In this document: positions 7,585 to 32,733 of the stretch, in pieces
Layout: the number at the start of each line of letters is the position of its first letter
Position numbering within the stretch: position 1 is the stretch's first letter
Source of the DNA: Bacillus bingmayongensis
GTDB lineage: Bacteria; Bacillota; Bacilli; Bacillales; Bacillaceae_G
Reading direction: 5' to 3'
NCBI RefSeq assembly: GCF_000299035.1
Contig: NZ_JH921517.1
Location: 795,317 to 859,316 of the forward strand
DNA length: 64,000 nucleotides
Notes under the pieces: model-generated
Seen by the model: the letters and a program-made list of their open reading frames with translations, nothing else
Told to the model about the DNA's origin: nothing
Database searches by the model: none
Position numbers and translations under genes: made by a program

Positions 7585-9656
7585 TTGGAAAGAATACCAT
7601 TATTAAATAATCCTGAGAAAAATATATTAATAAGAGTTATTATGAGCAGTATGATCGCGCTGCTATTAATAGTTTGTCTTTTTTTATCTTTGAGGATGTT
7701 TGGCTTAGAGGGAGCTAAAATTTATATGAATCAAAAGCTGCCTCTAGCTATTAGTTACGTTCTTTTGTGGGGGGGGAGCAATATATTTAACACTCTCTTA
7801 CAAAGGAATAGGTGAAAGAAGGAAGCTAAAGTCACTAGTTTATGTATTTGCGGTATTATTCATATTAGCAAATACAATGAGTGTATTTCTAATGTATATG
7901 CAGAATGAACTAAATGTATTCAAGACAGTGGATTGGCTGTATGGACATGTGGCACATTTTATGTTTAGTTTTGTGCTCATTTATATCATGTATATTTTGA
8001 CGTATGCTTTGAGTGGCAGTGTATTTTTTAGTAGTGTTTTCACAAGTATTTTATTTCTTGTATTTTCTACTATTAACTATTTAAAAATTTTCTTTAGAGG
8101 AGATCCATTTTATCCATCTGATTTTACCCAAATTGCTCATTTGCAATCTGTAATACCAATGGTAATGGATTCTATTCATACAAAGTCTATATGGATAAGT
8201 ATATTAGGAATAGTATGTAGTATTTTGCTTATCATGTATCTTCGCAAGTACATTAAACCCATAAAAATCCATTTGGTAATAAGAATGATTATCAGTATCA
8301 GTTATATGTGGATTTTCTATATATATGCGAATTATTCTGATAGCTTTGTAGGAAAATGGTTTCAAAAATGGGATGTAAATTTTGTCTTGTGGGACCAATG
8401 GGCCAATTACACTGAAAATGGTACGATTTTAGGATTTATTAGTAATTTAGATACAACAGTTGCTAAAGAGCCTGATGAATATACAAAAGACAATGTCATC
8501 AAAATTGCAAATAAAATAAAGAACAATTATAAGCACAATGTTGCGAGTGAGAAACAAGTGGACAAGCCAAATGTTATTCTTATAATGAGTGAGTCATTTT
8601 GGGACCCAACGAAATTAACAAATCTTACTTTTAGTGAAGATCCCCTGCCAAATCTTCATCATTATATAGGTGAGTTCCCAGCAGGACAAACGATTTCACC
8701 AACATTCGGTGGTAATACTGCAAATACCGAATTTGAAGCATTAACGAGTTATTTCTATGAGTTTTTTAAATCCAGGATCTATACCGTATCAGCAAGCGAT
8801 TCCGAAAAAGAAGGAAATACCATCTATTGTTAGTGAACTCAAAAAAAATGGTTATCATGCGACAGCAATTCATGCATTTGGCCGAAATTTCTTTAAGCGT
8901 GATTACGTATACAGTATATTAGGATTTGATAAATTTAATGCATATGATACGATGAAGCATAAGGAACAAGATGGAGAAGGGTATGTTAGTGATGTATCTA
9001 TGAGTAAGGAAATTATGGATGAGTTAAAAGCTGAGAAGGAACCTACTTTTATTCATGCTGTGACGATGCAAAATCATTTTCCATTTTCTCCAGGAAGATA
9101 TGAAGAAACGAGAACAAAGATTGAAGGATTAAATGAAGAGTCGAAGGCGCAATTAGAAGAATACACAGAAGGCTTGAGACGATCAGATGAAGCACTTCAA
9201 TATTTAATCGAAGAAATCAATGCTTTATCAGAACCGACTTTGCTGGTGTTCTTTGGAGACCATCTACCAGCATTAGGAGTAAATAAATCGATTTATAAAG
9301 AGGCTGGATATATAAATGCGGAGAAAACGGTACAGGAAAGATTGGCTATGTCAGAAACTCCATTGCTAGTTTATGCGAATTTTCCATTGCAAAATGATGA
9401 TTTAGGAATGGTGAGTCCGATTTATTTTTCAAATATGGTATTTGATTATATAGGAATCAATAAGTCGCCATTCTATCAATTTTTATCCAAATTGCAAGAG
9501 GAAATCCCTGTGTTAAAAGATGATTTAAAAGTGAATCGGGATGGAGAAAAGATAAATTTAAATGCAGAGCAAAAAGAAATGTTAAAGCAGTATCAATTAA
9601 TTCAATATGATTTATTAATTGGAAAACAATATAGTAAAGATATATTATTTTCATAA
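7585..9656 (+). pseudogene. LTA-synthase-like membrane sulfatase, broken by two frameshifts
   Basis: Three consecutive reading frames (7585-7815, 7877-8833, 8757-9656) together encode one protein of about 690 residues: N-terminal hydrophobic helices, then an extracellular sulfatase-like domain of the lipoteichoic acid synthase family (SESFWDP metal site, GGNTANTEFEALT with the nucleophile Thr, FFGDHLPALG metal site). Break 1 is in a run of eight G at 7769-7776; removing one G restores continuous sequence (WGGAIYLTLSYKG). Break 2 is near 8751-8754; removing one T gives LTSYSMSFLNPG. Both are +1 insertions. Either a decaying gene or sequencing indels; LtaS-type enzymes polymerise glycerol phosphate outside the membrane. 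Confidence 0.75.
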
Positions 9657-19170: not shown

Positions 19171-21030
19171 ATGAAAATTACAGAGCTTTTAAAAAGGGAT
19201 ACAATTATCATGGATTTGACAGCTTCAGCAAAAGAGGCTGTCATCGATGAATTAGTAGGGAAACTAGAAAAGGCAGGGAGATTGAACAGTCAAGCGGAAT
19301 TTAAAGAGGCCATTTTACAGCGTGAAATGCAAAGTACAACTGGAATTGGTGAAGGAATTGCTATTCCACATGCAAAAACAAAAGCGGTCAAACAACCAGC
19401 TATTTGTTTTGGACGCAGTGTAAGCGGTATCAACTATGATTCGCTTGATGGACAACCAGCTCATTTATTCTTTATGATTGCGGCTAGCGAAGGAGCAAAT
19501 AATACACATTTGGAAACGCTATCTCGCTTATCTACGATGTTAATGGACGAAACTTTTCGTAAACAGTTATTAGAAGCAAAAAGTGAAGAGGAGCTTCTTG
19601 AATTGTTCGATGAAGAAGAAAATGAAAACGAACAAGAAGATGAACTTAGTGAAGTAACAAAGCCCGAAGGAAATGAACCGTATGTACTAGCGGTAACAGC
19701 TTGTCCGACTGGTATCGCTCACACATATATGGCCGCGGATAGTCTAAAGGCGAAAGCAGCGGAATTGGGAATTGCGATTAAGGTCGAAACAAACGGTTCT
19801 ACTGGTGTGAAAAATGGGTTAACAAAAGAAGATATTGAGCGTGCAACAGCTATTATTGTTGCCGCAGATAAGCAAGTAGAAATGAATCGCTTTGCTGGAA
19901 AGCATGTGATTCAAGTACCAGTTGCAGATGGTATTCGGAAATCAGAGCAGTTGATCCATCAAGCTGTGAATCAAGAAGCTCCAATTTTTAAAGGAATAAA
20001 AGAAAGTGGAAAAGTAGAGGGAACAGAGAAGGAAAAAGGATTTGGTATTTATAAGCATTTGATGAGCGGTGTAAGTAATATGCTACCGTTTGTTGTCGGT
20101 GGTGGTATTTTAATTGCACTAGCCTTTTTCTTCGGTGGGATCGATACTAAAGGACCGATTGCAGAAACGTTAATGTCAATTGGTGGTAAAGGGGCGTTCC
20201 AATTCCTTGTTCCGATATTGGCTGGGTTTATTGCGAGTTCTATTGCGGATCGTCCAGGGTTTATGCCTGGTATTGTTGGCGGTTTTTTAGCAGCGCAAGA
20301 CAATGCAGGATTTTTAGGTGGATTAATTGCTGGTTTCTTAGCTGGATATATTGTACTTGGTTTAAAGAAAATATTAGCAGGTTTACCAGCGCAATTAGAA
20401 GGAATTAAACCTGTTTTATTATATCCGGTACTGGGTTTGTTACTTACAGGGTTATTAATGTTGAAAGTTGTAAACCCTCCTGTTGTGGCATTAAATGAGG
20501 CATTAACGAGTTGGTTAAATGGGTTAGGTGGTGCAAATGCTATATTATTAGGACTTATTTTAGGTGGAATGATGGCTGTTGATATGGGAGGCCCTATTAA
20601 TAAAGCAGCATTTACATTTGGGATTGCTGCAATTGAGGCTGGAAACTTTGGTGTGCATTCCGCTGTTATGGCTGGTGGAATGGTACCTCCGCTTGCGATT
20701 GCCTTTGCGACGACATTCTTTAAAGCGAAATTTACAGAAGCAGAGCGTAAATCAGGTTTTACAAACTATATTATGGGAGCATCATTTATTACAGAAGGGG
20801 CAATACCATTTGCAGCAGCTGATCCAATTCGTGTGATTGTCAGTTGTGTTGTTGGCTCAAGTCTCGCTGGTGCATTATCGATGTTATTTGGAATTACATT
20901 GCCAGCGCCACACGGTGGAATATTTGTCATATTATTAGTAAATAAACCAGTTTTATATATTCTTTCTATATTAATAGGTTCTGTAGTATCGGCTCTTATG
21001 CTAGGGGGATGGAAAAAGAAAATTTCATAA
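19171..21030 (+). CDS. fruA: PTS fructose transporter subunit EIIABC
   Basis: A 619-residue fused enzyme II. EIIA covers about residues 1-145 with phosphorylated His in AIPHAKT. An acidic linker (EEENENEQEDE) leads to EIIB (about 168-265) with active Cys in VTACPTGIAHT. EIIC (about 285-615) is a multi-helix membrane domain with DRPGFMPGIVGG and the EGAIPFA motif. It imports fructose and phosphorylates it at C1. Its terminator has been split by a transposon. Confidence 0.95.
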   Translation: MKITELLKRDTIIMDLTASAKEAVIDELVGKLEKAGRLNSQAEFKEAILQREMQSTTGIGEGIAIPHAKTKAVKQPAICFGRSVSGINYDSLDGQPAHLFFMIAASEGANNTHLETLSRLSTMLMDETFRKQLLEAKSEEELLELFDEEENENEQEDELSEVTKPEGNEPYVLAVTACPTGIAHTYMAADSLKAKAAELGIAIKVETNGSTGVKNGLTKEDIERATAIIVAADKQVEMNRFAGKHVIQVPVADGIRKSEQLIHQAVNQEAPIFKGIKESGKVEGTEKEKGFGIYKHLMSGVSNMLPFVVGGGILIALAFFFGGIDTKGPIAETLMSIGGKGAFQFLVPILAGFIASSIADRPGFMPGIVGGFLAAQDNAGFLGGLIAGFLAGYIVLGLKKILAGLPAQLEGIKPVLLYPVLGLLLTGLLMLKVVNPPVVALNEALTSWLNGLGGANAILLGLILGGMMAVDMGGPINKAAFTFGIAAIEAGNFGVHSAVMAGGMVPPLAIAFATTFFKAKFTEAERKSGFTNYIMGASFITEGAIPFAAADPIRVIVSCVVGSSLAGALSMLFGITLPAPHGGIFVILLVNKPVLYILSILIGSVVSALMLGGWKKKIS

Positions 21031-21049
21031 AACTCAAAAAGGACAGCTG
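21029..21049 (+). terminator. left arm of the split fruA terminator
   Basis: AAAACTCAAAAAGGAC-AGCTG begins at the last two bases of the fruA stop. Its exact complement is at 26196-26215. Joined, the arms form a 16-bp stem with an AGCT loop; the Tn554-type element separates them. Confidence 0.8.
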
Positions 21050-21208
21050 CTTAACTATTAAATAGACTAAACTTGGAAGAGGATATTATGTTCAATATAT
21101 GAGCATATATCCTCTTTTCTTATACATATCAGATAAGTTATACAGATATTAAAAATACAGTTCAATATGTATATAATATTTAGAAAAGTATGTACACTTA
21201 AGGTGGAG

Positions 21209-21249
21209 GACGTATCCCATAGTGGGATGCGTCGTGAGGTCTTTAGACC
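21209..21249 (+). promoter_or_regulatory. structured leader before tnpA
   Basis: Two adjacent hairpins: GACGTATCCCA/TGGGATGCGTC (21209-21233) and GGTCT/AGACC (21238-21249), 33 bp before the tnpA start. They may regulate tnp expression or belong to the element end. No T-run follows the first hairpin. Confidence 0.4.
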
Positions 21250-21281
21250 GAGCGTTAATATCTTTTTAGGGGTGAAGTACT

Positions 21282-22403
21282 ATGAGGGTGCAAGAGGTTG
21301 TCTTAGAGAATAACAGCAAAAGATACATATTACTGGATCAAGAAGGATTCCCTGTAATGCCAGTTATGAAATATATAAAGTATTTAGATAAGACAGGGAA
21401 AAGACCCAATACTCAAAAAGCATATTGTTACTCCTTAAAACATTTTTATACCTACTTAGAAGAAACAAACAAAGATTACAAGTTTATTAGATTAGAAGAT
21501 TTAGTTGACTTTGTAGGGTGGTTAAGAAGCCCCTATCAGAGTTCAAATGTCACTCCTCTCCAACAAAAGAAAGCAAAGCGAACGGAAAAAACAATTAACC
21601 ATACAATTACCGTTATAGCAAACTTCTATGAATACCTCTATCGAAATGAAGAAGTACAAAATGACATGATGGAAAAGTTAATGAAGCAAGTATTTACAGG
21701 AGGATACTCACGTTACAAAAGTTTTTTACACCATGTTAATAGGGACAAGCCATCAAACAGAAACATATTGAAGTTAAAAGAACCACGCAAAAGAGTAGAA
21801 ACCCTCACAAAAGAACAAGTACAACAAGTATTACAAGCAACTACTAATATACGAGATAAATTCTTAATTCAGCTGTTATTTGAAACGGGATTGCGTATTG
21901 GAGAAGCTCTCTCTCTTTTCATGGAGGATTTTGTTTATGACCATAAAAAAGGGCATCGGATTCGTTTGGTGGAACGAGGGGAATTAGAAAACGGTGCGAT
22001 GTTAAAAACAGGAGAACGTGAAATTTATGTATCACCATCCTTAATGGATTTATATGATGATTACTTGTATGAAGTGCTTGATGAATTAGAATTGGATTCA
22101 AACTTTGTTTTTGTAAAACTGAGAGGAAAAGATGTGGGAAAACCAATGGAATATTGGAACGTTGAGTCTCTATTTAAGCGTTTAAAAAAGAAAACAGAGA
22201 TAAGCCTACATCCTCACCTATTTCGTCATACACACGCTACAATTTTCTACCAGAAAACAAAGGATATTAAGCAAGTACAAGAACGATTAGGACATTCTCA
22301 AATTCAAACAACAATGAACCTATACCTACATCCTTCGGATGAAGATATTAGAGAAGATTGGAATAAAGCACAGTCCGAATTTAGCATAAATAAAAATAAT
22401 TGA
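21282..22403 (+). CDS. tnpA: Tn554-type transposase A, tyrosine recombinase
   Basis: A 373-residue phage-integrase-family recombinase. An N-terminal SAM-like core-binding domain covers about residues 15-110. The catalytic domain has Arg in ETGLRIGEALSLF, HLFRHTHAT (His-x-x-Arg), GHSQIQTT (second His) and nucleophile Tyr in MNLYLHP. Length fits Tn554 TnpA (about 360). AGGGGTGAAG precedes the ATG. It is first of the tnpA-tnpB-tnpC operon. Confidence 0.88.
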   Translation: MRVQEVVLENNSKRYILLDQEGFPVMPVMKYIKYLDKTGKRPNTQKAYCYSLKHFYTYLEETNKDYKFIRLEDLVDFVGWLRSPYQSSNVTPLQQKKAKRTEKTINHTITVIANFYEYLYRNEEVQNDMMEKLMKQVFTGGYSRYKSFLHHVNRDKPSNRNILKLKEPRKRVETLTKEQVQQVLQATTNIRDKFLIQLLFETGLRIGEALSLFMEDFVYDHKKGHRIRLVERGELENGAMLKTGEREIYVSPSLMDLYDDYLYEVLDELELDSNFVFVKLRGKDVGKPMEYWNVESLFKRLKKKTEISLHPHLFRHTHATIFYQKTKDIKQVQERLGHSQIQTTMNLYLHPSDEDIREDWNKAQSEFSINKNN

Positions 22404-22416
22404 GAGGAATTATTGC

Positions 22417-24528
22417 ATGAAACAAATCAAAAATGTTCAGGTAGAAAACATAGACTTTCACGAAGGTTTACAACGAGAACTTTCAGCTTATAACGAAAAA
22501 ATAATACATGTAGATGGTTCTGTTTCCATTGAACAAGTAACTAATCCTTACTTCTTAGTTAATGACGAATGGAATATTAACTTTATCGGTGGAATCAAGC
22601 AATTCGAAGAATTGATAGCAAACCATAACTTTCCAGCCAAAAATGTTCGTTTTCGATTTTGCAATCCTTCAATCAATTTAGAAGTGAAATATGTCTATTA
22701 TCAGCAATTGTTTAACGATTTATGGACAATTAAGACTATATTTAATGGTAATAATGCACCGTTAAAACGAATGTCGGAATTCTTAAACGAAAAATATGCC
22801 AAACAATCATCCCTATTGGAGTTGGATATCGATAAAACTGAAAAAGAGTATTTGTTTTGGTTGCATAATAAAGGAATTAAAACTCATTATAATCGAAAAA
22901 AATTCAATTATGATAGTTATATTAAAACCCCAGTAGCCGGTTTTCTAAGAACTATTTATACTACACTCTCCCAATACACTGATAAACAAGATGGATGGGA
23001 AAAAGATAGATGGGATGTTCGTATTTTACATGAGAAATACGATATTAATTATAACAAAAGCAGGCCCAACTATTACCTCGATTTCTCAAAGATTGACAGA
23101 AAGGTTCAAGAACAAGTAAAAAAGTATGTTAAACAGCGATTGCTTAGCAAAAATAATTTTTCATTCGGTAGAGCAACGATTTATCAGAATTACTTATCAA
23201 AGTTTTTTACTTTTATATTTTCATTAGAACCAGCATGGAAGAATTTAAAGCCTTTAAAAAGAACACATATTGAAAAGTATATTAAACACTTACATGAATA
23301 CGCTAAAAATAATTTAAAACAACGGAACTCGCATCCTGAGCTATATATAAATACAGCATTGTCAATCTTACAAAAGTTTCTTGAAGATATTCAGCGATAT
23401 GAATACGACATTGCGCCTGAAACGCCTGTACGATTATTGATTTTTCCAGAAGATAAACCGAAGTTAAGAAAAAAATCAATTGATCAAATTGACTATATAC
23501 CTGACTATGTATTAGAGCAACTCTTTACTCAACTCAATGATCTACATAGTGATGTTATACCGGTGATATGGATTGCTTTTAAAACAGGACTTAGAATTTC
23601 TGATGTATTAGGTTTAACTTCTGATTGCTTAGTAAAACTCAATGGAAAATATTCTATTGAAACGGATATTGAAAAAACATATGTAAAAGGGCATAGAATT
23701 CCAATTGATGATGAATTAGCAAATATTCTAGCGGTCCTTATCGAGAAATCCAAAAAACTTAGCAATCAAGACAACAATCCCGAAGGGTATGTTTTTGTTC
23801 GTTATCGTGGTACACGAAAAGGTAAACCATTTACCCAAGGTTTTATTAGAGATTATTTAAATCAATTAGCACATCAAAAAAACATTAAGGATGAAAATGG
23901 CGACTTATTTCACTTCAAAACTCACCAGTTCCGACATACTTATGGAGTAAAAATGTTGAATGGTGGCGCGGATATTCTAACAGTACAAGAGTTATTGGCT
24001 CACTCATCACCTGAAATGACCCTACGGTATGCAAAGCTATTAGATGATACAAAAAGAAAAGCATTTGAGTCAGTCATAAAGCAAGGTGTTTTTAGTTTTG
24101 ACTTAAATGGTGAAGTACAAGAAATTAAAGCAGGAGAAGATATTCCAACAGATATATTGGATGCCTTATGGCAGGATCATAAGTTAAATGCGATGGACAA
24201 CCCTTATGGAACGTGTCACGCTCGATTAAATGGAAGTTGCCCTCATATGGAAGCACCACCTTGTCTTACTTGTGGTGTTAACCAAACACCATGTAAGGAT
24301 TTAGCAGTTGGCTTTTCAAAATTAGATAAACAAAAGTATAAACTGCACATTAAAACAACCAGGAAGGCAATTGAAATAGCAAAACAACGAGGTCGAGAAG
24401 ATATCGCGGAGAAGAACGAAAAGAATTTACTACGTTACCAAAACATTTTAAATACCCTCCAAGAAGGAAATGTTATCTTTGGTAGACAAGACCGCATGAA
24501 ACGAAAGTTAGGTGTTAAACATGGCTGA
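22417..24528 (+). CDS. tnpB: Tn554-type transposase B, tyrosine recombinase
   Basis: A 703-residue recombinase, longer than Tn554 TnpB (about 630). Catalytic residues: Arg in KTGLRISDVLGLT, HQFRHTYGVK (His-x-x-Arg), LAHSSPEMT (His) and Tyr in LRYAKLL. After the catalytic domain comes a Cys-rich segment, GTCHARLNGSCPHMEAPPC and LTCGVNQTPC, likely a zinc-binding tail, then a charged helical end. It lies 13 bp after tnpA and overlaps tnpC. Confidence 0.88.
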   Translation: MKQIKNVQVENIDFHEGLQRELSAYNEKIIHVDGSVSIEQVTNPYFLVNDEWNINFIGGIKQFEELIANHNFPAKNVRFRFCNPSINLEVKYVYYQQLFNDLWTIKTIFNGNNAPLKRMSEFLNEKYAKQSSLLELDIDKTEKEYLFWLHNKGIKTHYNRKKFNYDSYIKTPVAGFLRTIYTTLSQYTDKQDGWEKDRWDVRILHEKYDINYNKSRPNYYLDFSKIDRKVQEQVKKYVKQRLLSKNNFSFGRATIYQNYLSKFFTFIFSLEPAWKNLKPLKRTHIEKYIKHLHEYAKNNLKQRNSHPELYINTALSILQKFLEDIQRYEYDIAPETPVRLLIFPEDKPKLRKKSIDQIDYIPDYVLEQLFTQLNDLHSDVIPVIWIAFKTGLRISDVLGLTSDCLVKLNGKYSIETDIEKTYVKGHRIPIDDELANILAVLIEKSKKLSNQDNNPEGYVFVRYRGTRKGKPFTQGFIRDYLNQLAHQKNIKDENGDLFHFKTHQFRHTYGVKMLNGGADILTVQELLAHSSPEMTLRYAKLLDDTKRKAFESVIKQGVFSFDLNGEVQEIKAGEDIPTDILDALWQDHKLNAMDNPYGTCHARLNGSCPHMEAPPCLTCGVNQTPCKDLAVGFSKLDKQKYKLHIKTTRKAIEIAKQRGREDIAEKNEKNLLRYQNILNTLQEGNVIFGRQDRMKRKLGVKHG

Positions 24529-24826
24529 ATATGACCGTTCTGCACATTTGAAAGTAATTCATGCCAAACGTAAAGCAAATACCCATAAAAAAGTAGATGA
24601 AGCCATTAAAAGGCTTATAGAGGCAAATGAAAAAATAAACTTTAACAGTGTATCTAGCGAAGCTGATGTATCAAAAGCAACACTCTATAACAACAAGAGC
24701 TTTCGTTCGAGAATTGAAACATTACGAAATCAACAGTCACAAGTGCCTACACCGAAACAAGTAAAGCGAGAAATGAATGAAAGTAACAAGGATGCCCTGA
24801 TCGCTTCCCTAAAAAGGAAAAATTAG
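24521..24826 (+). CDS. tnpC: Tn554-type transposition protein C (probably truncated by a stop)
   Basis: The frame from ATG 24521 encodes 101 residues with basic N-terminus and a TetR/HTH-like segment (NFNSVSSEADVSKATLYN), as in TnpC. It ends at TAG 24824-24826. The same frame continues for 24 more codons to a TAG at 24899 and encodes a heptad-like coiled coil (QLEDENKQLREQM) typical of the TnpC C-terminus, so a nonsense change is likely. It overlaps tnpB by 8 bp. TnpC affects orientation and efficiency of Tn554 transposition rather than catalysis. Confidence 0.75.
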   Translation: MAEYDRSAHLKVIHAKRKANTHKKVDEAIKRLIEANEKINFNSVSSEADVSKATLYNNKSFRSRIETLRNQQSQVPTPKQVKREMNESNKDALIASLKRKN

Positions 24827-24964
24827 CAATTGGAAGATGAAAATAAGCAATTAAGAGAGCAAATGAAAGTAGCTTACGCAGATGTATATAAGAAGTTATA
24901 GTCAATAGGAGAACGTCGTTCTCCTTCTCCAACAATCGGGCCATTTAATTGAATAAGACTACAC

Positions 24965-25004
24965 AAAAAGTCGCTTTCCTTACGTAAGGGAAAGCGACTT
25001 TTTA
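24965..25004 (+). terminator. terminator of the tnp operon
   Basis: AAAAGTCGCTTTCC and GGAAAGCGACTTTT form a perfect stem with T-run. Confidence 0.9.
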
Positions 25005-25074
25005 GATTGATTTCCCCCTTGTTATCAAGCTTTTTACTTTAAGTTTCTTTGACTGATTTTGAAAATGTCGTTGA

Positions 25075-25134
25075 CTATTCAGTTGAACTGTATTATGTTA
25101 TTATTAAGTTGAACTATATAGTCAAACTGAATAG
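25075..25134 (+). promoter_or_regulatory. candidate operator of the transposon-borne PadR regulator
   Basis: A perfect 10-bp inverted repeat CTATTCAGTT / AACTGAATAG with arms 40 bp apart brackets the presumed promoter. AGTTGAACT occurs twice inside. It ends 11 bp before the PadR start. PadR autoregulation through such palindromes is common; binding here is inferred. Confidence 0.5.
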
Positions 25135-25145
25135 AGGATGAGGAT

Positions 25146-25463
25146 ATGAAACATAAATTATTACCGTTGTCTGAAACCATGCATTATATTTTATTAGCTA
25201 TGCGTGAGCCACTCCATGGCTATGCCGTAATGCAGAAGATAGAAAAGATAAGTAACGGTACTGTTATTTTAGCAGCTGGTACATTATATGGTGCGATTGA
25301 AAACTTGAATAAGCATGGTTGGATTGAGCCTGTTGGAGAGTCAGGTCGGAGAAAAGTTTATATGATAACTGCGGAAGGAAGTGCCATTTTGAAAATGGAA
25401 CAAAACAGGCTATTGCATATTTTATCCCTGTACGAAGGAAGTGAATCGAATGAAGAAATTTAA
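25146..25463 (+). CDS. PadR-family transcriptional regulator
   Basis: A 105-residue PadR-type winged helix: MHYILLAMREPLHGYAVMQKIEK, then the ILAAGTLYGAIENLNKHGWIEP recognition helix and wing. The short C-terminal helix makes it a PadR-s2 (Vtr-like) member. It overlaps the next gene, which encodes its usual partner, a DUF2812 protein. It is the cargo of the Tn554-type element. Confidence 0.88.
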   Translation: MKHKLLPLSETMHYILLAMREPLHGYAVMQKIEKISNGTVILAAGTLYGAIENLNKHGWIEPVGESGRRKVYMITAEGSAILKMEQNRLLHILSLYEGSESNEEI

Positions 25464-26016
25464 GATGTTTTTTGATATTGAAAAAGAGGAGCAATGGCTG
25501 AACGAGCAATTACAAAAAGGCTATCGTTGTACAAATATTAGTGGATTAGGAATATACACTTTCGAAAAAACTGACAAGAGATATGTTATGCGACTTGATT
25601 ATCAAGATTATTTACCTAAGAAAAAGTTGGTTGAATACAAAGGGATATATAAGGATTTCGGTTGGAACTATATAAAGGGGGCCTGGCTTAGTGGAATACG
25701 GTATTGGCAAAAAGAAGATGATGATCAAAATGAAATCTTCTCGGATCGCCAATCAAAGGGTAATTATTATAAAAGATTAATGGGTTATTCATTTTGGTTG
25801 GGTACGCTGTGTTTAGCTTATTCTTATATGTTTTACAAGGATTCGGGATTATATCATGAAGGTCTTTGGAATATGAAAGATTCATTATTTTGGAAGGCAT
25901 TTTTATTTGAAACTCCATTTGTCCTTGTGAAGTTGTCTCCCACACTTCTGTTTGTTTTTTTTGGTATCAGTTTCTATAAAGTTTATCGAAAGTATTCAAT
26001 GTTAAAAGAAAAATAA
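25450..26016 (+). CDS. DUF2812 domain membrane protein
   Basis: A 188-residue protein. The N-terminal DUF2812 domain (about 1-110) opens KKFKMFFDIEKEEQWLNEQLQKGY. Two hydrophobic helices follow (about 118-135 and 160-178) and then a basic tail. Such proteins are often encoded directly after PadR regulators, and their function is unknown. The ATG at 25450 has GAAGGAAGTG 6 bases upstream; a GTG at 25441 is in frame but poorly placed. Overlap with padR is 14 bp. Confidence 0.75.
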   Translation: MKKFKMFFDIEKEEQWLNEQLQKGYRCTNISGLGIYTFEKTDKRYVMRLDYQDYLPKKKLVEYKGIYKDFGWNYIKGAWLSGIRYWQKEDDDQNEIFSDRQSKGNYYKRLMGYSFWLGTLCLAYSYMFYKDSGLYHEGLWNMKDSLFWKAFLFETPFVLVKLSPTLLFVFFGISFYKVYRKYSMLKEK

Positions 26017-26106
26017 TGCGAGGAGATTAATTATGAACTGTTTTTAATTCAAAGAAGTAATTGAGGATAATGTATCTACCACAGTCGGGCGCGATTGTGG
26101 AATAAG

Positions 26107-26155
26107 AAAGGAGATTACATATTAGTCATATAAAATATGTAATCTCCTTTAATTT
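26107..26155 (+). terminator. hairpin near the right end of the Tn554-type element
   Basis: AAAGGAGATTACATATT pairs perfectly with AATATGTAATCTCCTTT across 10 bases. The T-run is interrupted. A second imperfect hairpin (CCACAGTCG/CGATTGTGG) lies at 26079-26100. Both may be transposon-end structure rather than simple terminators. Confidence 0.6.
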
Positions 26156-26195
26156 ATTTATCTTTTTTTAATTTAGGTCTTGATAATGAAAGGAT

Positions 26196-26215
26196 AGCTG
26201 TCCTTTTTGAGTTTT
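26196..26215 (+). terminator. right arm of the split fruA terminator
   Basis: AGCTGTCCTTTTTGAGTTTT is the exact complement of 21029-21048. Confidence 0.8.
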
Positions 26216-26307
26216 AATGTCAGCTATATACGAATATTAAAATACAAAAGATTTATTGCATAAAAAGACATAATGTAACTGGAATTTGTAATGTTTCAGT
26301 GTTTTTT

Positions 26308-29582: not shown

Positions 29583-31655
29583 TTAATGAATGCGGAAGAT
29601 AGTGAGTTTAACAGTGGTATTGCCTGTATCGGGAATAGTAATTGTATTAGCAGTAGATTGAATAGTAATCGTATTTCGGGCTTTCAATGTTTCAATTGTG
29701 GAAAATGTAATTGAACTTCCAATTGCATTTGCTGAAAAGTTATCAGAAGGTATGTTGCCATTAATGGAAATGCCAAAGCCGAAGGGAGCTGAACCTGAAA
29801 ATATTGTTGAAGCTGAAAAGTCAATGACATATACACCATCTTCAAGTATTGTGATTGTGTCTGTTGCATCGAAGTGTATGTTATTTATGTTAGAAGTAAG
29901 ATTGAACCGGACGTTTTGATTGGGTTTTATAGTTTGTGGAAGTGTATTTTTTAGTACAGCTGTAGTTACCGGAAAGTTAAATCCTTGAGGCCCTCGCTCG
30001 CCCTGAGGTCCTTGTTCGCCTTGGGGTCCTTGTTCGCCCTGAGGTCCTTGTTCGCCCTGAGGTCCTTGTTCGCCTTGAGGCCCTTGTTCGCCTTGGAGTC
30101 CTTGTTCGCCTTGAGGCCCTTGTTCACCCTGAGGCCCCTGTTCGCCTTGGGGTCCTTGTTCGCCCTGAGGCCCTTGTTCGCCTTGGAGTCCTTGTTCGCC
30201 TTGAGGCCCTTGTTCACCCTGAGGCCCCTGTTCGCCTTGGGGTCCTTGTTCGCCCTGAGGCCCTTGTTCGCCTTGGAGTCCTTGTTCGCCCTGAGGCCCT
30301 TGTTCACCCTGAGGCCCCTGTTCGCCCTGAGGTCCTCGCTCGCCTTGAGGTCCTTGTTCGCCCTGAGGTCCTTGTTCGCCCTGAGGCCCTTGTTCGCCCT
30401 GAGGTCCTTGTTCGCCTTGAGGTCCTTGTTCGCCCTGAGGTCCTTGTTCGCCCTGAGGTCCTTGTTCGCCCTGAGGTCCTTGTTCGCCTTGAGGTCCTTG
30501 TTCGCCCTGAGGTCCTTGTTCGCCCTGAGGTCCTTGTTCGCCCTGAGGTCCTTGTTCGCCTTGAGGTCCTTGTTCGCCTTGGAGTCCTTGTTCGCCTTGG
30601 GGCCCTTGTTCACCCTGAGGCCCCTGTTCGCCTTGGGGTCCTTGTTCGCCCTGAGGCCCTTGTTCACCCTGGGGTCCTTGTTCACCCTGAGGCCCTTGTT
30701 CGCCTTGGGTACCTTGTTCGCCTTGAGGTCCTCGCTTACCCTGAGGTCCTTGTTTGCCTTGAGGCCCTCGTTCGCCTTGGGGCCCTTGTTCACCCTGAGA
30801 CCCTTGTTCACCCTGAGGCCCTTGTTCGCCCTGAGGCCCTTGTTCGCCTTGGGGTCCTTGTTCGCCTTGGGGTCCTTGTTCGCCCTGAGGCCCTTGTTCG
30901 CCTTGGGGTCCTTGTTCGCCTTGGGGTCCTTGTTCGCCCTGAGGCCCTTGTTCGCCTTTGGGTCCTTGTTCGCCCTGAGGCCCTTGTTCGCCCTGAGGTC
31001 CTTGTTCGCCCTGAGGCCCTTGTTCGCCTTGGGGTCCTTGTTCGCCCTGAGGCCCTTGTTCGCCTTGAGTTCCTTGTTCGCCTTGGGGTCCTTGTTCGCC
31101 TTGAGGTCCTATCTCACCTTGAGGCCCTTGTTCGCCTTGAGGTCCTATCTCACCTTGAGGCCCTTGTTCGCCTCGAGGTCCAGTCATTCCAATTGGCGCA
31201 ATTTGTAGTGAAGTAATTTGTAAATTTTTTATTTGCACGATGATTTTTTTGAATACACGATGATTGATTTTAAATAATTTAGTGGTATACAGTAAAAAGT
31301 TGAGCAAGTTTTGTAATTCAATATATGTTGCATTTGCTACAAAAGGCTGATTTTCCAAAATAGTAATTAAATTTTCGACAATTGCGATGCCGGTTTCTCG
31401 CTGTGTAAGTGTTAAGTTTAAGCGTTCCAGGAACCCTTTTATTATTTCTAATAAGTTTATAAATTCTTTTATGTTAGATTGTATTGGATAGGAAAATACA
31501 GCTGGAATAATATTAGTTAAGTCACTTAAAGTATCGGAAAAAAGATTTAAGTATAATTCAGGAATAGGGGTATAATGAACTGCCGGAATACGGAGAGGTT
31601 GTGTTGGGAAATACGGTTTTGAAGTCTTTTTCAGATTATCGTTAAAATGAGACAT
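29583..31655 (-). CDS. collagen-like repeat protein with BclA-type C-terminal domain
   Basis: 690 residues in three parts. Residues 1 to about 155 are an alpha-helical domain without signal peptide. About 130 Gly-X-Y triplets follow, almost all in GPQGEQ hexapeptides with rare [24 protein letters not shown] and GPKGEQ variants. The last 130 residues form a beta-rich domain ([16 protein letters not shown] to LTIFRIH) like the C1q/TNF-type trimerising end of BclA. There is no Thr-rich GPT triplet run as in glycosylated BclA and no obvious exosporium leader. AAAGGAG precedes ATG 31655; the frame also runs upstream to 31697. Spore-surface location is inferred. Confidence 0.82.
29985..31190 (-). 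repeat. 18-bp tandem repeat array (GPQGEQ codons) with 90-bp higher-order units
   Basis: The collagen region is a tandem array of 18-bp units such as GGTCCTTGTTCGCCCTGA (plus strand). Units starting CCTTGGAGTC recur at exactly 30091, 30181 and 30271, and the first two 90-bp blocks appear identical. Such arrays vary in copy number by slippage or recombination. Confidence 0.9.
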
Positions 31656-31749
31656 TAAAATTCTCCTTTCTAATTTAGATGCTGAAAAACCTATCATAGT
31701 AGATGCAAGTTAAATATAAAAAGGAATAGGGGAACGGGCTGTTTGTATG

Positions 31750-31784
31750 AAAAATAGTAAAAACGCCTATTTATGAGGCGTTTT
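31750..31784 (-). terminator. terminator of the tyrosine-recombinase-like gene
   Basis: AACGCCT / AGGCGTT arms include the stop codon region; T-run lies on the minus strand. Confidence 0.75.
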
Positions 31785-32733
31785 CTTTTTGTTTTGCGTA
31801 TTGATAATACCTTTTTAAGGAAATTTTTGATTTAAAACCAACACGTTTCATGATTTCTTGTTCTGGAATGTGCTGCTCAATTAAACGTAAAATAAAAGTG
31901 TTCCGAAAGTGTTGACCAGAAATTCCTTTGCGTAAATTTGCTCGAGCTACTTCAAGACGAATCATTTTTTGAACAGCTATTTCTGTTAGTGCTTTTGGGG
32001 CATCGTTTTCGTACACCCAGCGATATGTGTTACGGTTGAAATCAAATGCTACAAACAGTGGGTCATCACTATGGTATTTGGGACGAACTGGTTCAGGGAT
32101 TTTTTTATAATAGTTATATAGTTGTTTTTTGTCGTTGTGAGTTAAATTAATGGTTCTTTCAACACCTGCTACAGCTGGGATGGAAATTGTATTTGTTTCA
32201 AAATGAACGTGATGCATATTTAATGATACAAGTTCTTGTAGGGATAAGCCGTAGTCAATGAGTAAATTCACAATAGAAATATTACGATCCATTAGTAAGG
32301 GACGGACAGGACGTTGCTTCTCTGATAATCCTTCTAATGAAGTCAGGGTATGTTTTAAGCGTTTTTCGTCCTCTTTTGAAATGAAATCTTCATCGCGTAA
32401 CGCACGATTAGGTTGGATGACGAGTTCCATATCCTTTAATGGATTTGGGAGGTTTAAAAACTGATATAGTCTATTTAAGACAATAAATACACGGTGCATT
32501 GTTTTTTCAGAGTAATGTCGTTTCTTTTTTAAGTCGGAAAAATAATCTTCGTAGTCTTTTGTACAAAGTGTAGCCCATATATTACTAGAGGAAAGCTTTT
32601 TATTTTTTTTTAACCAATTCCCAAAATCTTCAATATCATAGACGTAACGTTTGATGGTTGAGGGTTTTCGACCTTTATTTAATAAAAAGGCAGAAAAAGC
32701 TTGTACCGTATCATGAAGATCCTTTGTTTCCAT
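31771..32733 (-). CDS. tyrosine-recombinase-fold protein with degenerate active site
   Basis: A 320-residue protein with an N-terminal SAM-like core-binding domain (about 1-110: KGRKPSTIKRYVYDIEDFGNWL) and a C-terminal catalytic-fold domain. The catalytic set is largely lost. The first Arg (normally GLRxxEL) is absent in YGLSLQELVSL, the HxxR His is Gln in GQHFRNTF, and the LGH His is Phe in RVGFKSK; the second Arg and a Tyr (RYYQYA) remain. It is intact and sits in the conserved hfq-spoVK interval, so it may be a DNA-binding protein rather than an active integrase. Confidence 0.75.
   Translation of the reverse strand: METKDLHDTVQAFSAFLLNKGRKPSTIKRYVYDIEDFGNWLKKNKKLSSSNIWATLCTKDYEDYFSDLKKKRHYSEKTMHRVFIVLNRLYQFLNLPNPLKDMELVIQPNRALRDEDFISKEDEKRLKHTLTSLEGLSEKQRPVRPLLMDRNISIVNLLIDYGLSLQELVSLNMHHVHFETNTISIPAVAGVERTINLTHNDKKQLYNYYKKIPEPVRPKYHSDDPLFVAFDFNRNTYRWVYENDAPKALTEIAVQKMIRLEVARANLRKGISGQHFRNTFILRLIEQHIPEQEIMKRVGFKSKISLKRYYQYAKQKENAS

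What the first reader, a model, noticed from the sequence alone, without database searches (positions are those of the whole stretch)
21029..26215. Tn554-type transposon inserted in the loop of the fruA terminator
The 20 bp following fruA (21029-21048) are the exact reverse complement of 26196-26215. Joining the flanks and keeping one AGCTG yields a 16-bp stem with an AGCT loop and T-tail, a complete intrinsic terminator. The 5.15-kb element therefore sits exactly in the hairpin apex, with AGCTG at both junctions. Classical Tn554 targets radC with a different core, so this looks like a family member with another target.
Basis: partly seen in the sequence, partly recalled or inferred. Interest (0 to 1): 0.72.

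Follow-up and report, generated by a model that had tools for sequence, protein, structure and literature searches.

The report
Transposon family inserting into terminator hairpins
A small jumping element sits inside the loop of a gene's transcription stop signal, and several of its closest relatives in other bacteria sit inside the loops of differently spelled hairpins, so they may choose a DNA shape or symmetry rather than a fixed DNA word.

Summary
The window holds a Tn554-related transposon (tnpA, tnpB, tnpC, padR and DUF2812 cargo) right after fruA. Its reconstruction is wrong in detail: relatives put the element ends at 21058 and 26186, each flanked by a 7-nt core (TTAACTA left, TGAAAGG right). 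AGCTG is part of the stem, not a duplicated core; the reconstructed empty site folds as a 22-bp stem with a 9-nt loop (-31.1 kcal/mol). Of 25 elements scored with both ends (window included), 11 sit at the loop of a 10-22-bp hairpin (score >=20), against 6 of 600 mismatched flank pairs. The hairpins differ in sequence; all 11 fall in one TnpA clade (20 rows, 100/99), and 8 of 9 scored members of its inner clade qualify. For four relatives, element-free genomes or copies show the hairpin at the insertion point; the nearest kin matches the 7-nt geometry. The fruA empty site could not be checked. Best reading: a Tn554-related clade that targets hairpin (dyad) loops, mostly terminators. How the dyad is recognised is inferred.

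The parts
19171..21030 (+). fruA (PTS EIIA_2 / IIB domains, 619 aa); the host gene whose terminator is the target
21028..21049 (+). left arm of the target hairpin (begins at the fruA stop codon)
21051..21057 (+). left 7-nt core TTAACTA, read as the target's own loop sequence
   Evidence: geometry shown by the empty site of L200
21058..26186 (+). the transposon, 5,129 bp
   Evidence: conserved left and right ends in relatives
21058..21072 (+). left terminal motif TTAAATAGACTAAAC (imperfect inverted partner of the right end)
21075..21118 (+). hairpin just inside the left end; its 3' arm ends in TTTT, then CTTATAC; possibly a replacement terminator for fruA (inferred)
   Evidence: -21.4 kcal/mol fold; not listed by the consensus terminator scan
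21149..21177 (+). promoter-like site upstream of tnpA (TTAAAA-17-TATAAT)
   Evidence: consensus match only; the region has fewer such matches than shuffles
21203..21262 (+). conserved, probably structured leader before tnpA
   Evidence: no Rfam match there
21282..22403 (+). tnpA, tyrosine recombinase, 373 aa
   Evidence: Pfam PF00589 2.7e-30; R205, H312, R315, H338, Y348 among the columns invariant in 4 sequences
22417..24528 (+). tnpB, long tyrosine recombinase, 703 aa
   Evidence: Pfam PF00589 1.2e-23
24512..24826 (+). tnpC (DUF6262), ended early by an in-frame TAG; the relative in L001 has 126 aa
24965..25003 (+). terminator-like hairpin after tnpC
25146..25463 (+). PadR-family regulator (cargo)
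25441..26016 (+). DUF2812 protein (cargo)
26107..26150 (+). hairpin just inside the right end, conserved in relatives; terminator-like
   Evidence: 17 bp perfect; right-end alignment
26187..26193 (+). right 7-nt core TGAAAGG, read as the core brought in from the previous donor site
   Evidence: rule from PMC12486829 and PMC10214605
26195..26216 (+). right arm of the target hairpin

Best explanation
A Tn554-related transposon has integrated into the loop of the fruA intrinsic terminator. TnpA and TnpB (tyrosine recombinases) with TnpC make a circular intermediate whose joint carries a 7-nt core from the old site; they exchange strands within the 7-nt loop of a host dyad, leaving the target's own core at the left end and the brought-in core at the right end. 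Its clade uses hairpin-forming dyads of unrelated sequence, mostly gene-end terminators, as attB: the two inverted arms act as the two recombinase half-sites. The element carries its own hairpins just inside both ends, so the broken terminator is probably replaced. Shown: ends, cores, hairpin at the site, hairpins at relatives' sites, hairpins at four relatives' empty sites. Inferred: that the dyad or hairpin itself is what the recombinase recognises, the route of movement (from Tn552-II and SE work), and replacement of termination.
For: Conserved ends and 7-nt cores. Stem score >=20 in 11 of 25 scored elements (all 11 score 22 or more) versus 6 of 600 mismatched flank pairs; the next-best element scores 14 and the other 13 score 10 or less; for the 11, 0 to 48 host positions in the same stretch score as high, out of 6,768 to 58,747. 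Even when left and right flanks are swapped only among the 11 hairpin sites, 4 of 110 pairs reach 20. The arms differ in sequence, with no register-fixed motif found beyond T-richness. All 11 lie in one 20-row TnpA clade (100/99); 8 of 9 scored rows in the inner 10-row clade (100/100). Empty sites: L207, flank 95% identical, reads ATCAGTGGGA-AGAAAAT-TCCCACTGA where L200 (nearest kin of the window) has AGAAAAA on the left and a foreign ACTTGTT on the right. Among the loci fetched, 16 of 19 siblings at the L046 site and 1 of 2 at the L009 site have a hairpin scoring >=18 behind the same gene, and 10 of 19 loci of the L008 repeat have one scoring >=31 with similar arms (aligned views). Upstream genes of eight sites differ: PTS, TatC, thioredoxin-like, ABC ATPase, Fer2_2, Pyr_redox_2, RadC, SSF.
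Against: Not every clade member uses a hairpin: L006 (score 9) in the inner clade, L010 (14) and L146 (7) in the wider clade, L201 (7) just outside it; L060, a 2.1-kb remnant left out of the 25, scores 12. L011 is a hairpin with no gene end within 200 nt and no T-tail; L008 lies in a repeated element rather than at a gene end. The right end of L059 is a weak model match (E 0.11). Eleven mini-elements on Priestia plasmids with both ends found, most with a left end like ours and none with an annotated transposase inside, score only 6-8 and sit in what I read as one gene family; what moved them is unknown. The threshold was set after seeing the data. The fruA empty site was not found. Only 4 of 19 siblings have the L200 target hairpin (by eye).
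Confidence: 0.8

Rival explanations
1. Loose target choice plus selection: the element inserts at many intergenic places and only harmless insertions near gene ends survive; the hairpins are incidental.
For: Most hairpin sites are close behind a gene end (7 of 11, window included, have a co-oriented stop codon 12-84 nt before the left core), and some clade members lack a hairpin.
Against: Selection for harmless gaps does not put the 7-nt core at the loop of a 10-22-bp dyad; for each of the 11, under 0.3% of positions in the same stretch do as well. L011 and L008 show hairpins without a gene-end terminator role.
Confidence: 0.1
2. Ordinary sequence-specific attB: the recombinases read a motif in the terminator arms (for example pyrimidine-rich with a T-run about 11-16 nt from the core), and pairing of the arms is a by-product of terminators.
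For: T is found in 19 of 22 arms at position 11 and 17 of 22 at position 16 from the core.
Against: Total information is not above register-shifted arms (P=0.80) and the peak position is not exceptional (P=0.11); L011 arms have no T-run yet pair over 10 bp. Both tests are weak with 11 sites.
Confidence: 0.15
3. One reading: AGCTG is a 5-bp core duplicated at both junctions, target a 16-bp stem with AGCT loop.
For: AGCTG is present at both sides.
Against: Conserved element ends lie 8 and 9 nt further in; in relatives the cores are 7 nt and differ at the two ends, and the empty site of the nearest kin shows a 7-nt loop.
Confidence: 0.03

Closest known systems
Tn554 / Tn6188 / Tn558 / Tn559 / Tn5406 (radC-targeting Tn554 family)
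   Same: tnpA-tnpB-tnpC order, two tyrosine recombinases, about 5.1 kb with a small cargo (Tn6188 is 5,117 bp), short junction sequences (passages of PMC3788773)
   Different: those show a strong preference for one conserved site inside radC; this one is in a terminator loop. L016 sits 15 nt behind a RadC-domain gene, not in it
Tn552-II (Tn554-related, Staphylococcus aureus)
   Same: 7-bp spacer, target copy at the left end, different brought-in copy at the right end, circular intermediate detected (part 1 of 3 of PMC12486829); TnpA 51% identical (H19)
   Different: targets genes such as a yolD-like gene; no hairpin target is described in the part read
[quoted passage not shown]
   Same: one ordinary and one long tyrosine recombinase plus a TnpC-like helper; left flank core carried into the circle and placed at the right of the new copy (passages of PMC10214605)
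   Different: 6-bp core, an extra tfp gene, Gammaproteobacteria; the word terminator does not occur in that paper's main text
Group IIC introns (terminator-associated insertion)
   Same: insertions at terminator stem-loops of unrelated sequence (recalled; only a search listing was seen)
   Different: RNA-based retroelement; different enzymes; inserts beside, not within, the loop (recalled)

Membership tests
Tn554-related tyrosine-recombinase transposons | tnpA, tnpB, tnpC in this order, TnpA and the long TnpB being tyrosine recombinases | tested here: met
   tnpC is DUF6262 as in the Bacillaceae and Listeria relatives
Tn554-related tyrosine-recombinase transposons | no target duplication; short core differs at the two ends | tested here: met
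   TTAACTA versus TGAAAGG
Tn554-related tyrosine-recombinase transposons | left core is the target's, right core is brought in | tested here: inconclusive
   shown cleanly for L200 and fits L008, L009, L046; the window's own empty site was not available
Tn554-related tyrosine-recombinase transposons | circular intermediate and transposition | not testable with these tools
   needs DNA from the strain; the window's tnpC is cut short
radC-targeting Tn554 group (Tn554, Tn6188) | insertion at the conserved site inside radC | tested here: not met
   insertion behind fruA
Strand-biased circularizing integrative elements | tfp gene between intA and intB | tested here: not met
   tnpA and tnpB are adjacent with 13 nt between
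Intrinsic terminator (the target) | GC-containing stem, short loop, T-run | tested here: met
   reconstructed 22-bp stem, T-rich right arm (CCTTTTTGAGTTTTA); function not measured

The most novel reading that the evidence does not exclude
A pair of transposon-encoded tyrosine recombinases recognises its target by dyad symmetry or an extruded hairpin, not by a fixed sequence, so that many terminators with a loop of about 7-9 nt are landing sites: a structure-guided integrase system comparable in principle to attC recognition by integron integrases (recalled), but on the host-target side.
Probability: 0.45. Interest if true: 0.85.

Novelty: new variant of a known kind. Interest (0 to 1): 0.7.

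Why it matters
Tn554-like elements are best known for one conserved target gene, and some carry resistance genes (PMC3788773, passages). A clade that uses terminator loops would explain how such elements reach many loci without killing genes, would make their insertion sites predictable from sequence, and would offer a testable case of DNA-shape or symmetry recognition by tyrosine recombinases.

Tried and rejected
Rejected: terminal repeats of the element as the source of the inverted repeat (flanks differ between relatives, and hairpins exist without the element). Rejected: a fixed AGCTG core (see rivals). Folding 63-nt joins and counting any crossing pairs was too noisy a test (11 of 22 real versus 115 of 462 mismatched pairs at >=12 pairs) and was replaced by a stem anchored at the core.

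Led nowhere: exact search for the empty fruA hairpin in viral contigs, first without a loop, then with a 6-16-nt gap, 0 matches each; near search of plasmids with the fruA end, no match; fruA end in 19 and 397 genomes, best-scoring match 76% identical over 582 nt; left-end pattern in viral contigs, 0 matches; Rfam at E<=1, two matches below their gathering scores; PADLOC, one weak match of the PadR protein (E 0.0091).

Literature: ten searches. Searches found no paper with all terms (Tn554 + terminator + insertion site + tyrosine recombinase; tyrosine recombinase + rho-independent terminator + integration site + hairpin; insertion sequence + inserts into + rho-independent terminators + target site). 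Searches gave listings, of which only the top rows are shown; I saw no title or abstract start there describing a Tn554-like element aimed at terminators. Most subscription papers are absent from that library. Passages were read of PMC10214605, PMC3414803, PMC3788773 and PMC10782965; a find in PMC5704250 returned none; part 1 of 3 of PMC12486829 was read.

Dropped rows: one search scored 25 elements for which I had both ends and flanks; relatives with one end or no flank (for example L007, L012, L013, L021, L055) were left out. L060 was left out by a length limit and scored later at 12, which would make it 11 of 26. The tree left out L018, L019, L036, L150 and L151 as near-copies and best pieces under 100 aa except L058 and L059. 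Of 14 Priestia records, 12 were fetched, 11 of them with both ends. Empty-site counts use the loci handed out: 19 of the other 31 genomes searched for L046 and for L200; 19 loci for L008 from 36 genomes, one of which did not align.

Full report
Observation. The inverted repeat is in the sequence: 21028-21048 and 26196-26216 pair perfectly over 21 nt, the left arm starting at the stop codon of fruA (PTS EIIA_2 and IIB domains). Between them lie tnpA (373 aa, Phage_integrase), tnpB (703 aa, Phage_integrase), tnpC (DUF6262), a PadR regulator and a DUF2812 protein. The host looks like the Bacillus cereus group (my inference from the gene neighbourhood; no tool named the organism, and no whole genome is held).

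Element limits. In most of them the alignment with the window begins at 21057-21058 on the left and ends at 26186-26187 on the right; a few run some nucleotides further. Ends read TTAAATAGACTAAAC and AGGTCTTGATAA. In a relative that interrupts a ligase-like gene (L023) the reading frame is kept, by my reading, if 7 nt are counted on each side as a core. In the window these cores are TTAACTA and TGAAAGG. This is the rule reported for Tn552-II, with a 7-bp att of the target on the left and a brought-in att on the right (PMC12486829, part 1 of 3 read), and for SEs with 6 bp (PMC10214605, passages). With the left core kept, the host flanks fold to a 22-bp stem with a 9-nt loop, -31.1 kcal/mol; with the right core kept, -33.5.

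Targets of relatives. For 25 elements with both ends, the window included, I scored the best stem beginning within 3 nt of the 7-nt core. Eleven score 22 or more (10-22 bp): window, L200, L008, L009, L046, L054, L058, L059, L016, L030, L011. The other 14 score 14 or less. Of 600 mismatched left-right pairs 6 reach 20; among pairs swapped only within the 11 hairpin sites, 4 of 110. Within each element's own host DNA, 0 to 48 positions score as high, out of 6,768 to 58,747. The arm sequences differ, and tests for a register-fixed motif were negative (P=0.80 for total information; P=0.11 for the best position), though T is common 11-16 nt from the core. Genes upstream of eight sites are unrelated: PTS, TatC, thioredoxin-like, ABC ATPase, Fer2_2, Pyr_redox_2, RadC, SSF. 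In seven of the 11 a co-oriented stop codon ends 12-84 nt before the left core, the window included, where the stop codon is in the stem. L059 lies behind a gene reading the other way, L030 is 278 nt behind a gene, L008 is in a repeated element and L011 has no ORF of 100 aa ending within 200 nt.

Empty sites. L200, nearest to the window on the tree (98/92), has AATCAGTGGGA-AGAAAAA on the left and ACTTGTT-TCCCACTGATTTTT on the right; an element-free sibling with a 95% identical flank reads AATCAGTGGGA-AGAAAAT-TCCCACTGA (L207). So the left core is the target's 7-nt loop and the right core is foreign. By eye the hairpin of this site is also in L210, L212 and L221, 4 of 19 siblings in all; the same stretch holds another hairpin nearer to tatC in most of them. 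At the L046 site 16 of 19 siblings have a hairpin of score 18 or more right behind the same ABC ATPase gene, in five of them (L166-L170) of a different sequence (for example L156 and L157); the loops there are up to 2 nt longer than the 7-nt core. At the L009 site 1 of 2 has it (L175). The L008 target is a hairpin in an element repeated in Cytobacillus genomes; 10 of 19 loci score 31 or more with similar arms, and aligned copies have CAATCTT where L008 has CAAACTT. The fruA empty site was sought in viral contigs, plasmids and in 19 and 397 genomes and not found; the best-scoring fruA was 76% identical.

Phylogeny. On a TnpA tree of 66 rows all 11 hairpin elements fall in a 20-row clade (100/99) that also holds 3 scored non-hairpin elements (L006, L010, L146) and 6 unscored rows. 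The inner 10-row clade with the window (100/100) has 8 hairpin elements, 1 not (L006) and 1 unscored. The label needs 4 changes where shuffles average 8.4 (1 of 500 as low for the hairpin label, 2 of 500 for the other). L054, L058 and L059 are short pieces and their place within the clade is unsure. Other clades interrupt genes (ligase-like, a gene with an SGRCDNC motif, and others; my reading of the flanks, not a family search).

Results against. L006, L010 and L146 in the wider clade and L201 beside it are not in hairpins by this score; L060, left out of the 25, scores 12. The right end of L059 is a weak match (E 0.11). Eleven Priestia plasmid loci with both ends, 0.9-3.3 kb long and without an annotated transposase inside (the plasmid gene table is incomplete), all score 6-8 and lie in what I read as one gene family. 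They may be moved by an L003-type helper, which lies on another plasmid of the same strain as L232 though its tnpA is in two pieces. So the end sequence does not by itself predict the target class. The threshold of 20 was chosen after seeing the scores, though the gap (14 to 22) is wide.

Mechanism. Shown: 7-nt cores, hairpin at the site, hairpins at four kin sites without the element. Taken from the literature: circle with the left core, TnpC as helper. Inferred: the two inverted arms serve as the half-sites for TnpA/TnpB, either as B-form dyad or as an extruded hairpin. The element has a 44-nt hairpin 17 nt inside its left end (21075-21118, -21.4 kcal/mol) and a 17-bp hairpin inside its right end (26107-26150), both also seen in the aligned ends of relatives, so fruA transcripts are probably still ended; this was not measured, and the consensus scan lists neither. 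The window copy's tnpC is cut by an in-frame TAG, so this copy may be impaired.

Verdict. The finding is real and larger than stated: a new target class within a known transposon kind. I file it as Tn554-related, not as a radC-type Tn554.

Noticed in passing
window 21203-21262: Leader before tnpA is strongly conserved between the window and 11 relatives and predicted to form two hairpins (13 pairs, 1 with a change on both sides); no Rfam match there. A differently spelled leader seems present in the L031-L041 group (by eye).
   Followed up: partly
L226-L234 and L236, from locus position 9001: Mini-elements of about 0.9-2.3 kb with Tn554-like ends on Priestia plasmids, 8 of these 10 carrying a map (methionyl aminopeptidase) gene and none an annotated transposase, in what reads as one target gene family.
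   Followed up: partly
L016 9767-9773 and 13824-13830; L152; L006: Left and right cores are reverse complements (7 of 7 in L016 and L152, 6 of 7 in L006). Perhaps re-insertion at the same site in the opposite orientation.
   Followed up: no
L006, L007, L051, L147 left or right flanks: A shared AATAAAGT..ACC-like sequence beside the junctions, perhaps a second target type or the end of another repeated element (by eye).
   Followed up: no
window 24824-24826: In-frame TAG ends tnpC at 104 codons; a further stretch resembling the relatives' C-terminus follows in the same frame. The relative in L001 has 126 aa.
   Followed up: partly
window 25075-25134: Nested inverted repeats before padR, possibly the PadR operator.
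   Followed up: no
window 29583-31697 and 31771-32733: A collagen-like GPQGEQ repeat gene beside another XerA-like tyrosine recombinase gene.
   Followed up: no
L014 and L047: Contigs labelled Vibrio and Chryseobacterium hold Bacillaceae-type elements; contamination is possible.
   Followed up: no
L008 9730-9842: A repeated hairpin-bearing element in Cytobacillus genomes, several copies in some genomes; its CGGGCGCGATTGT motif also occurs in the window near 26085.
   Followed up: partly
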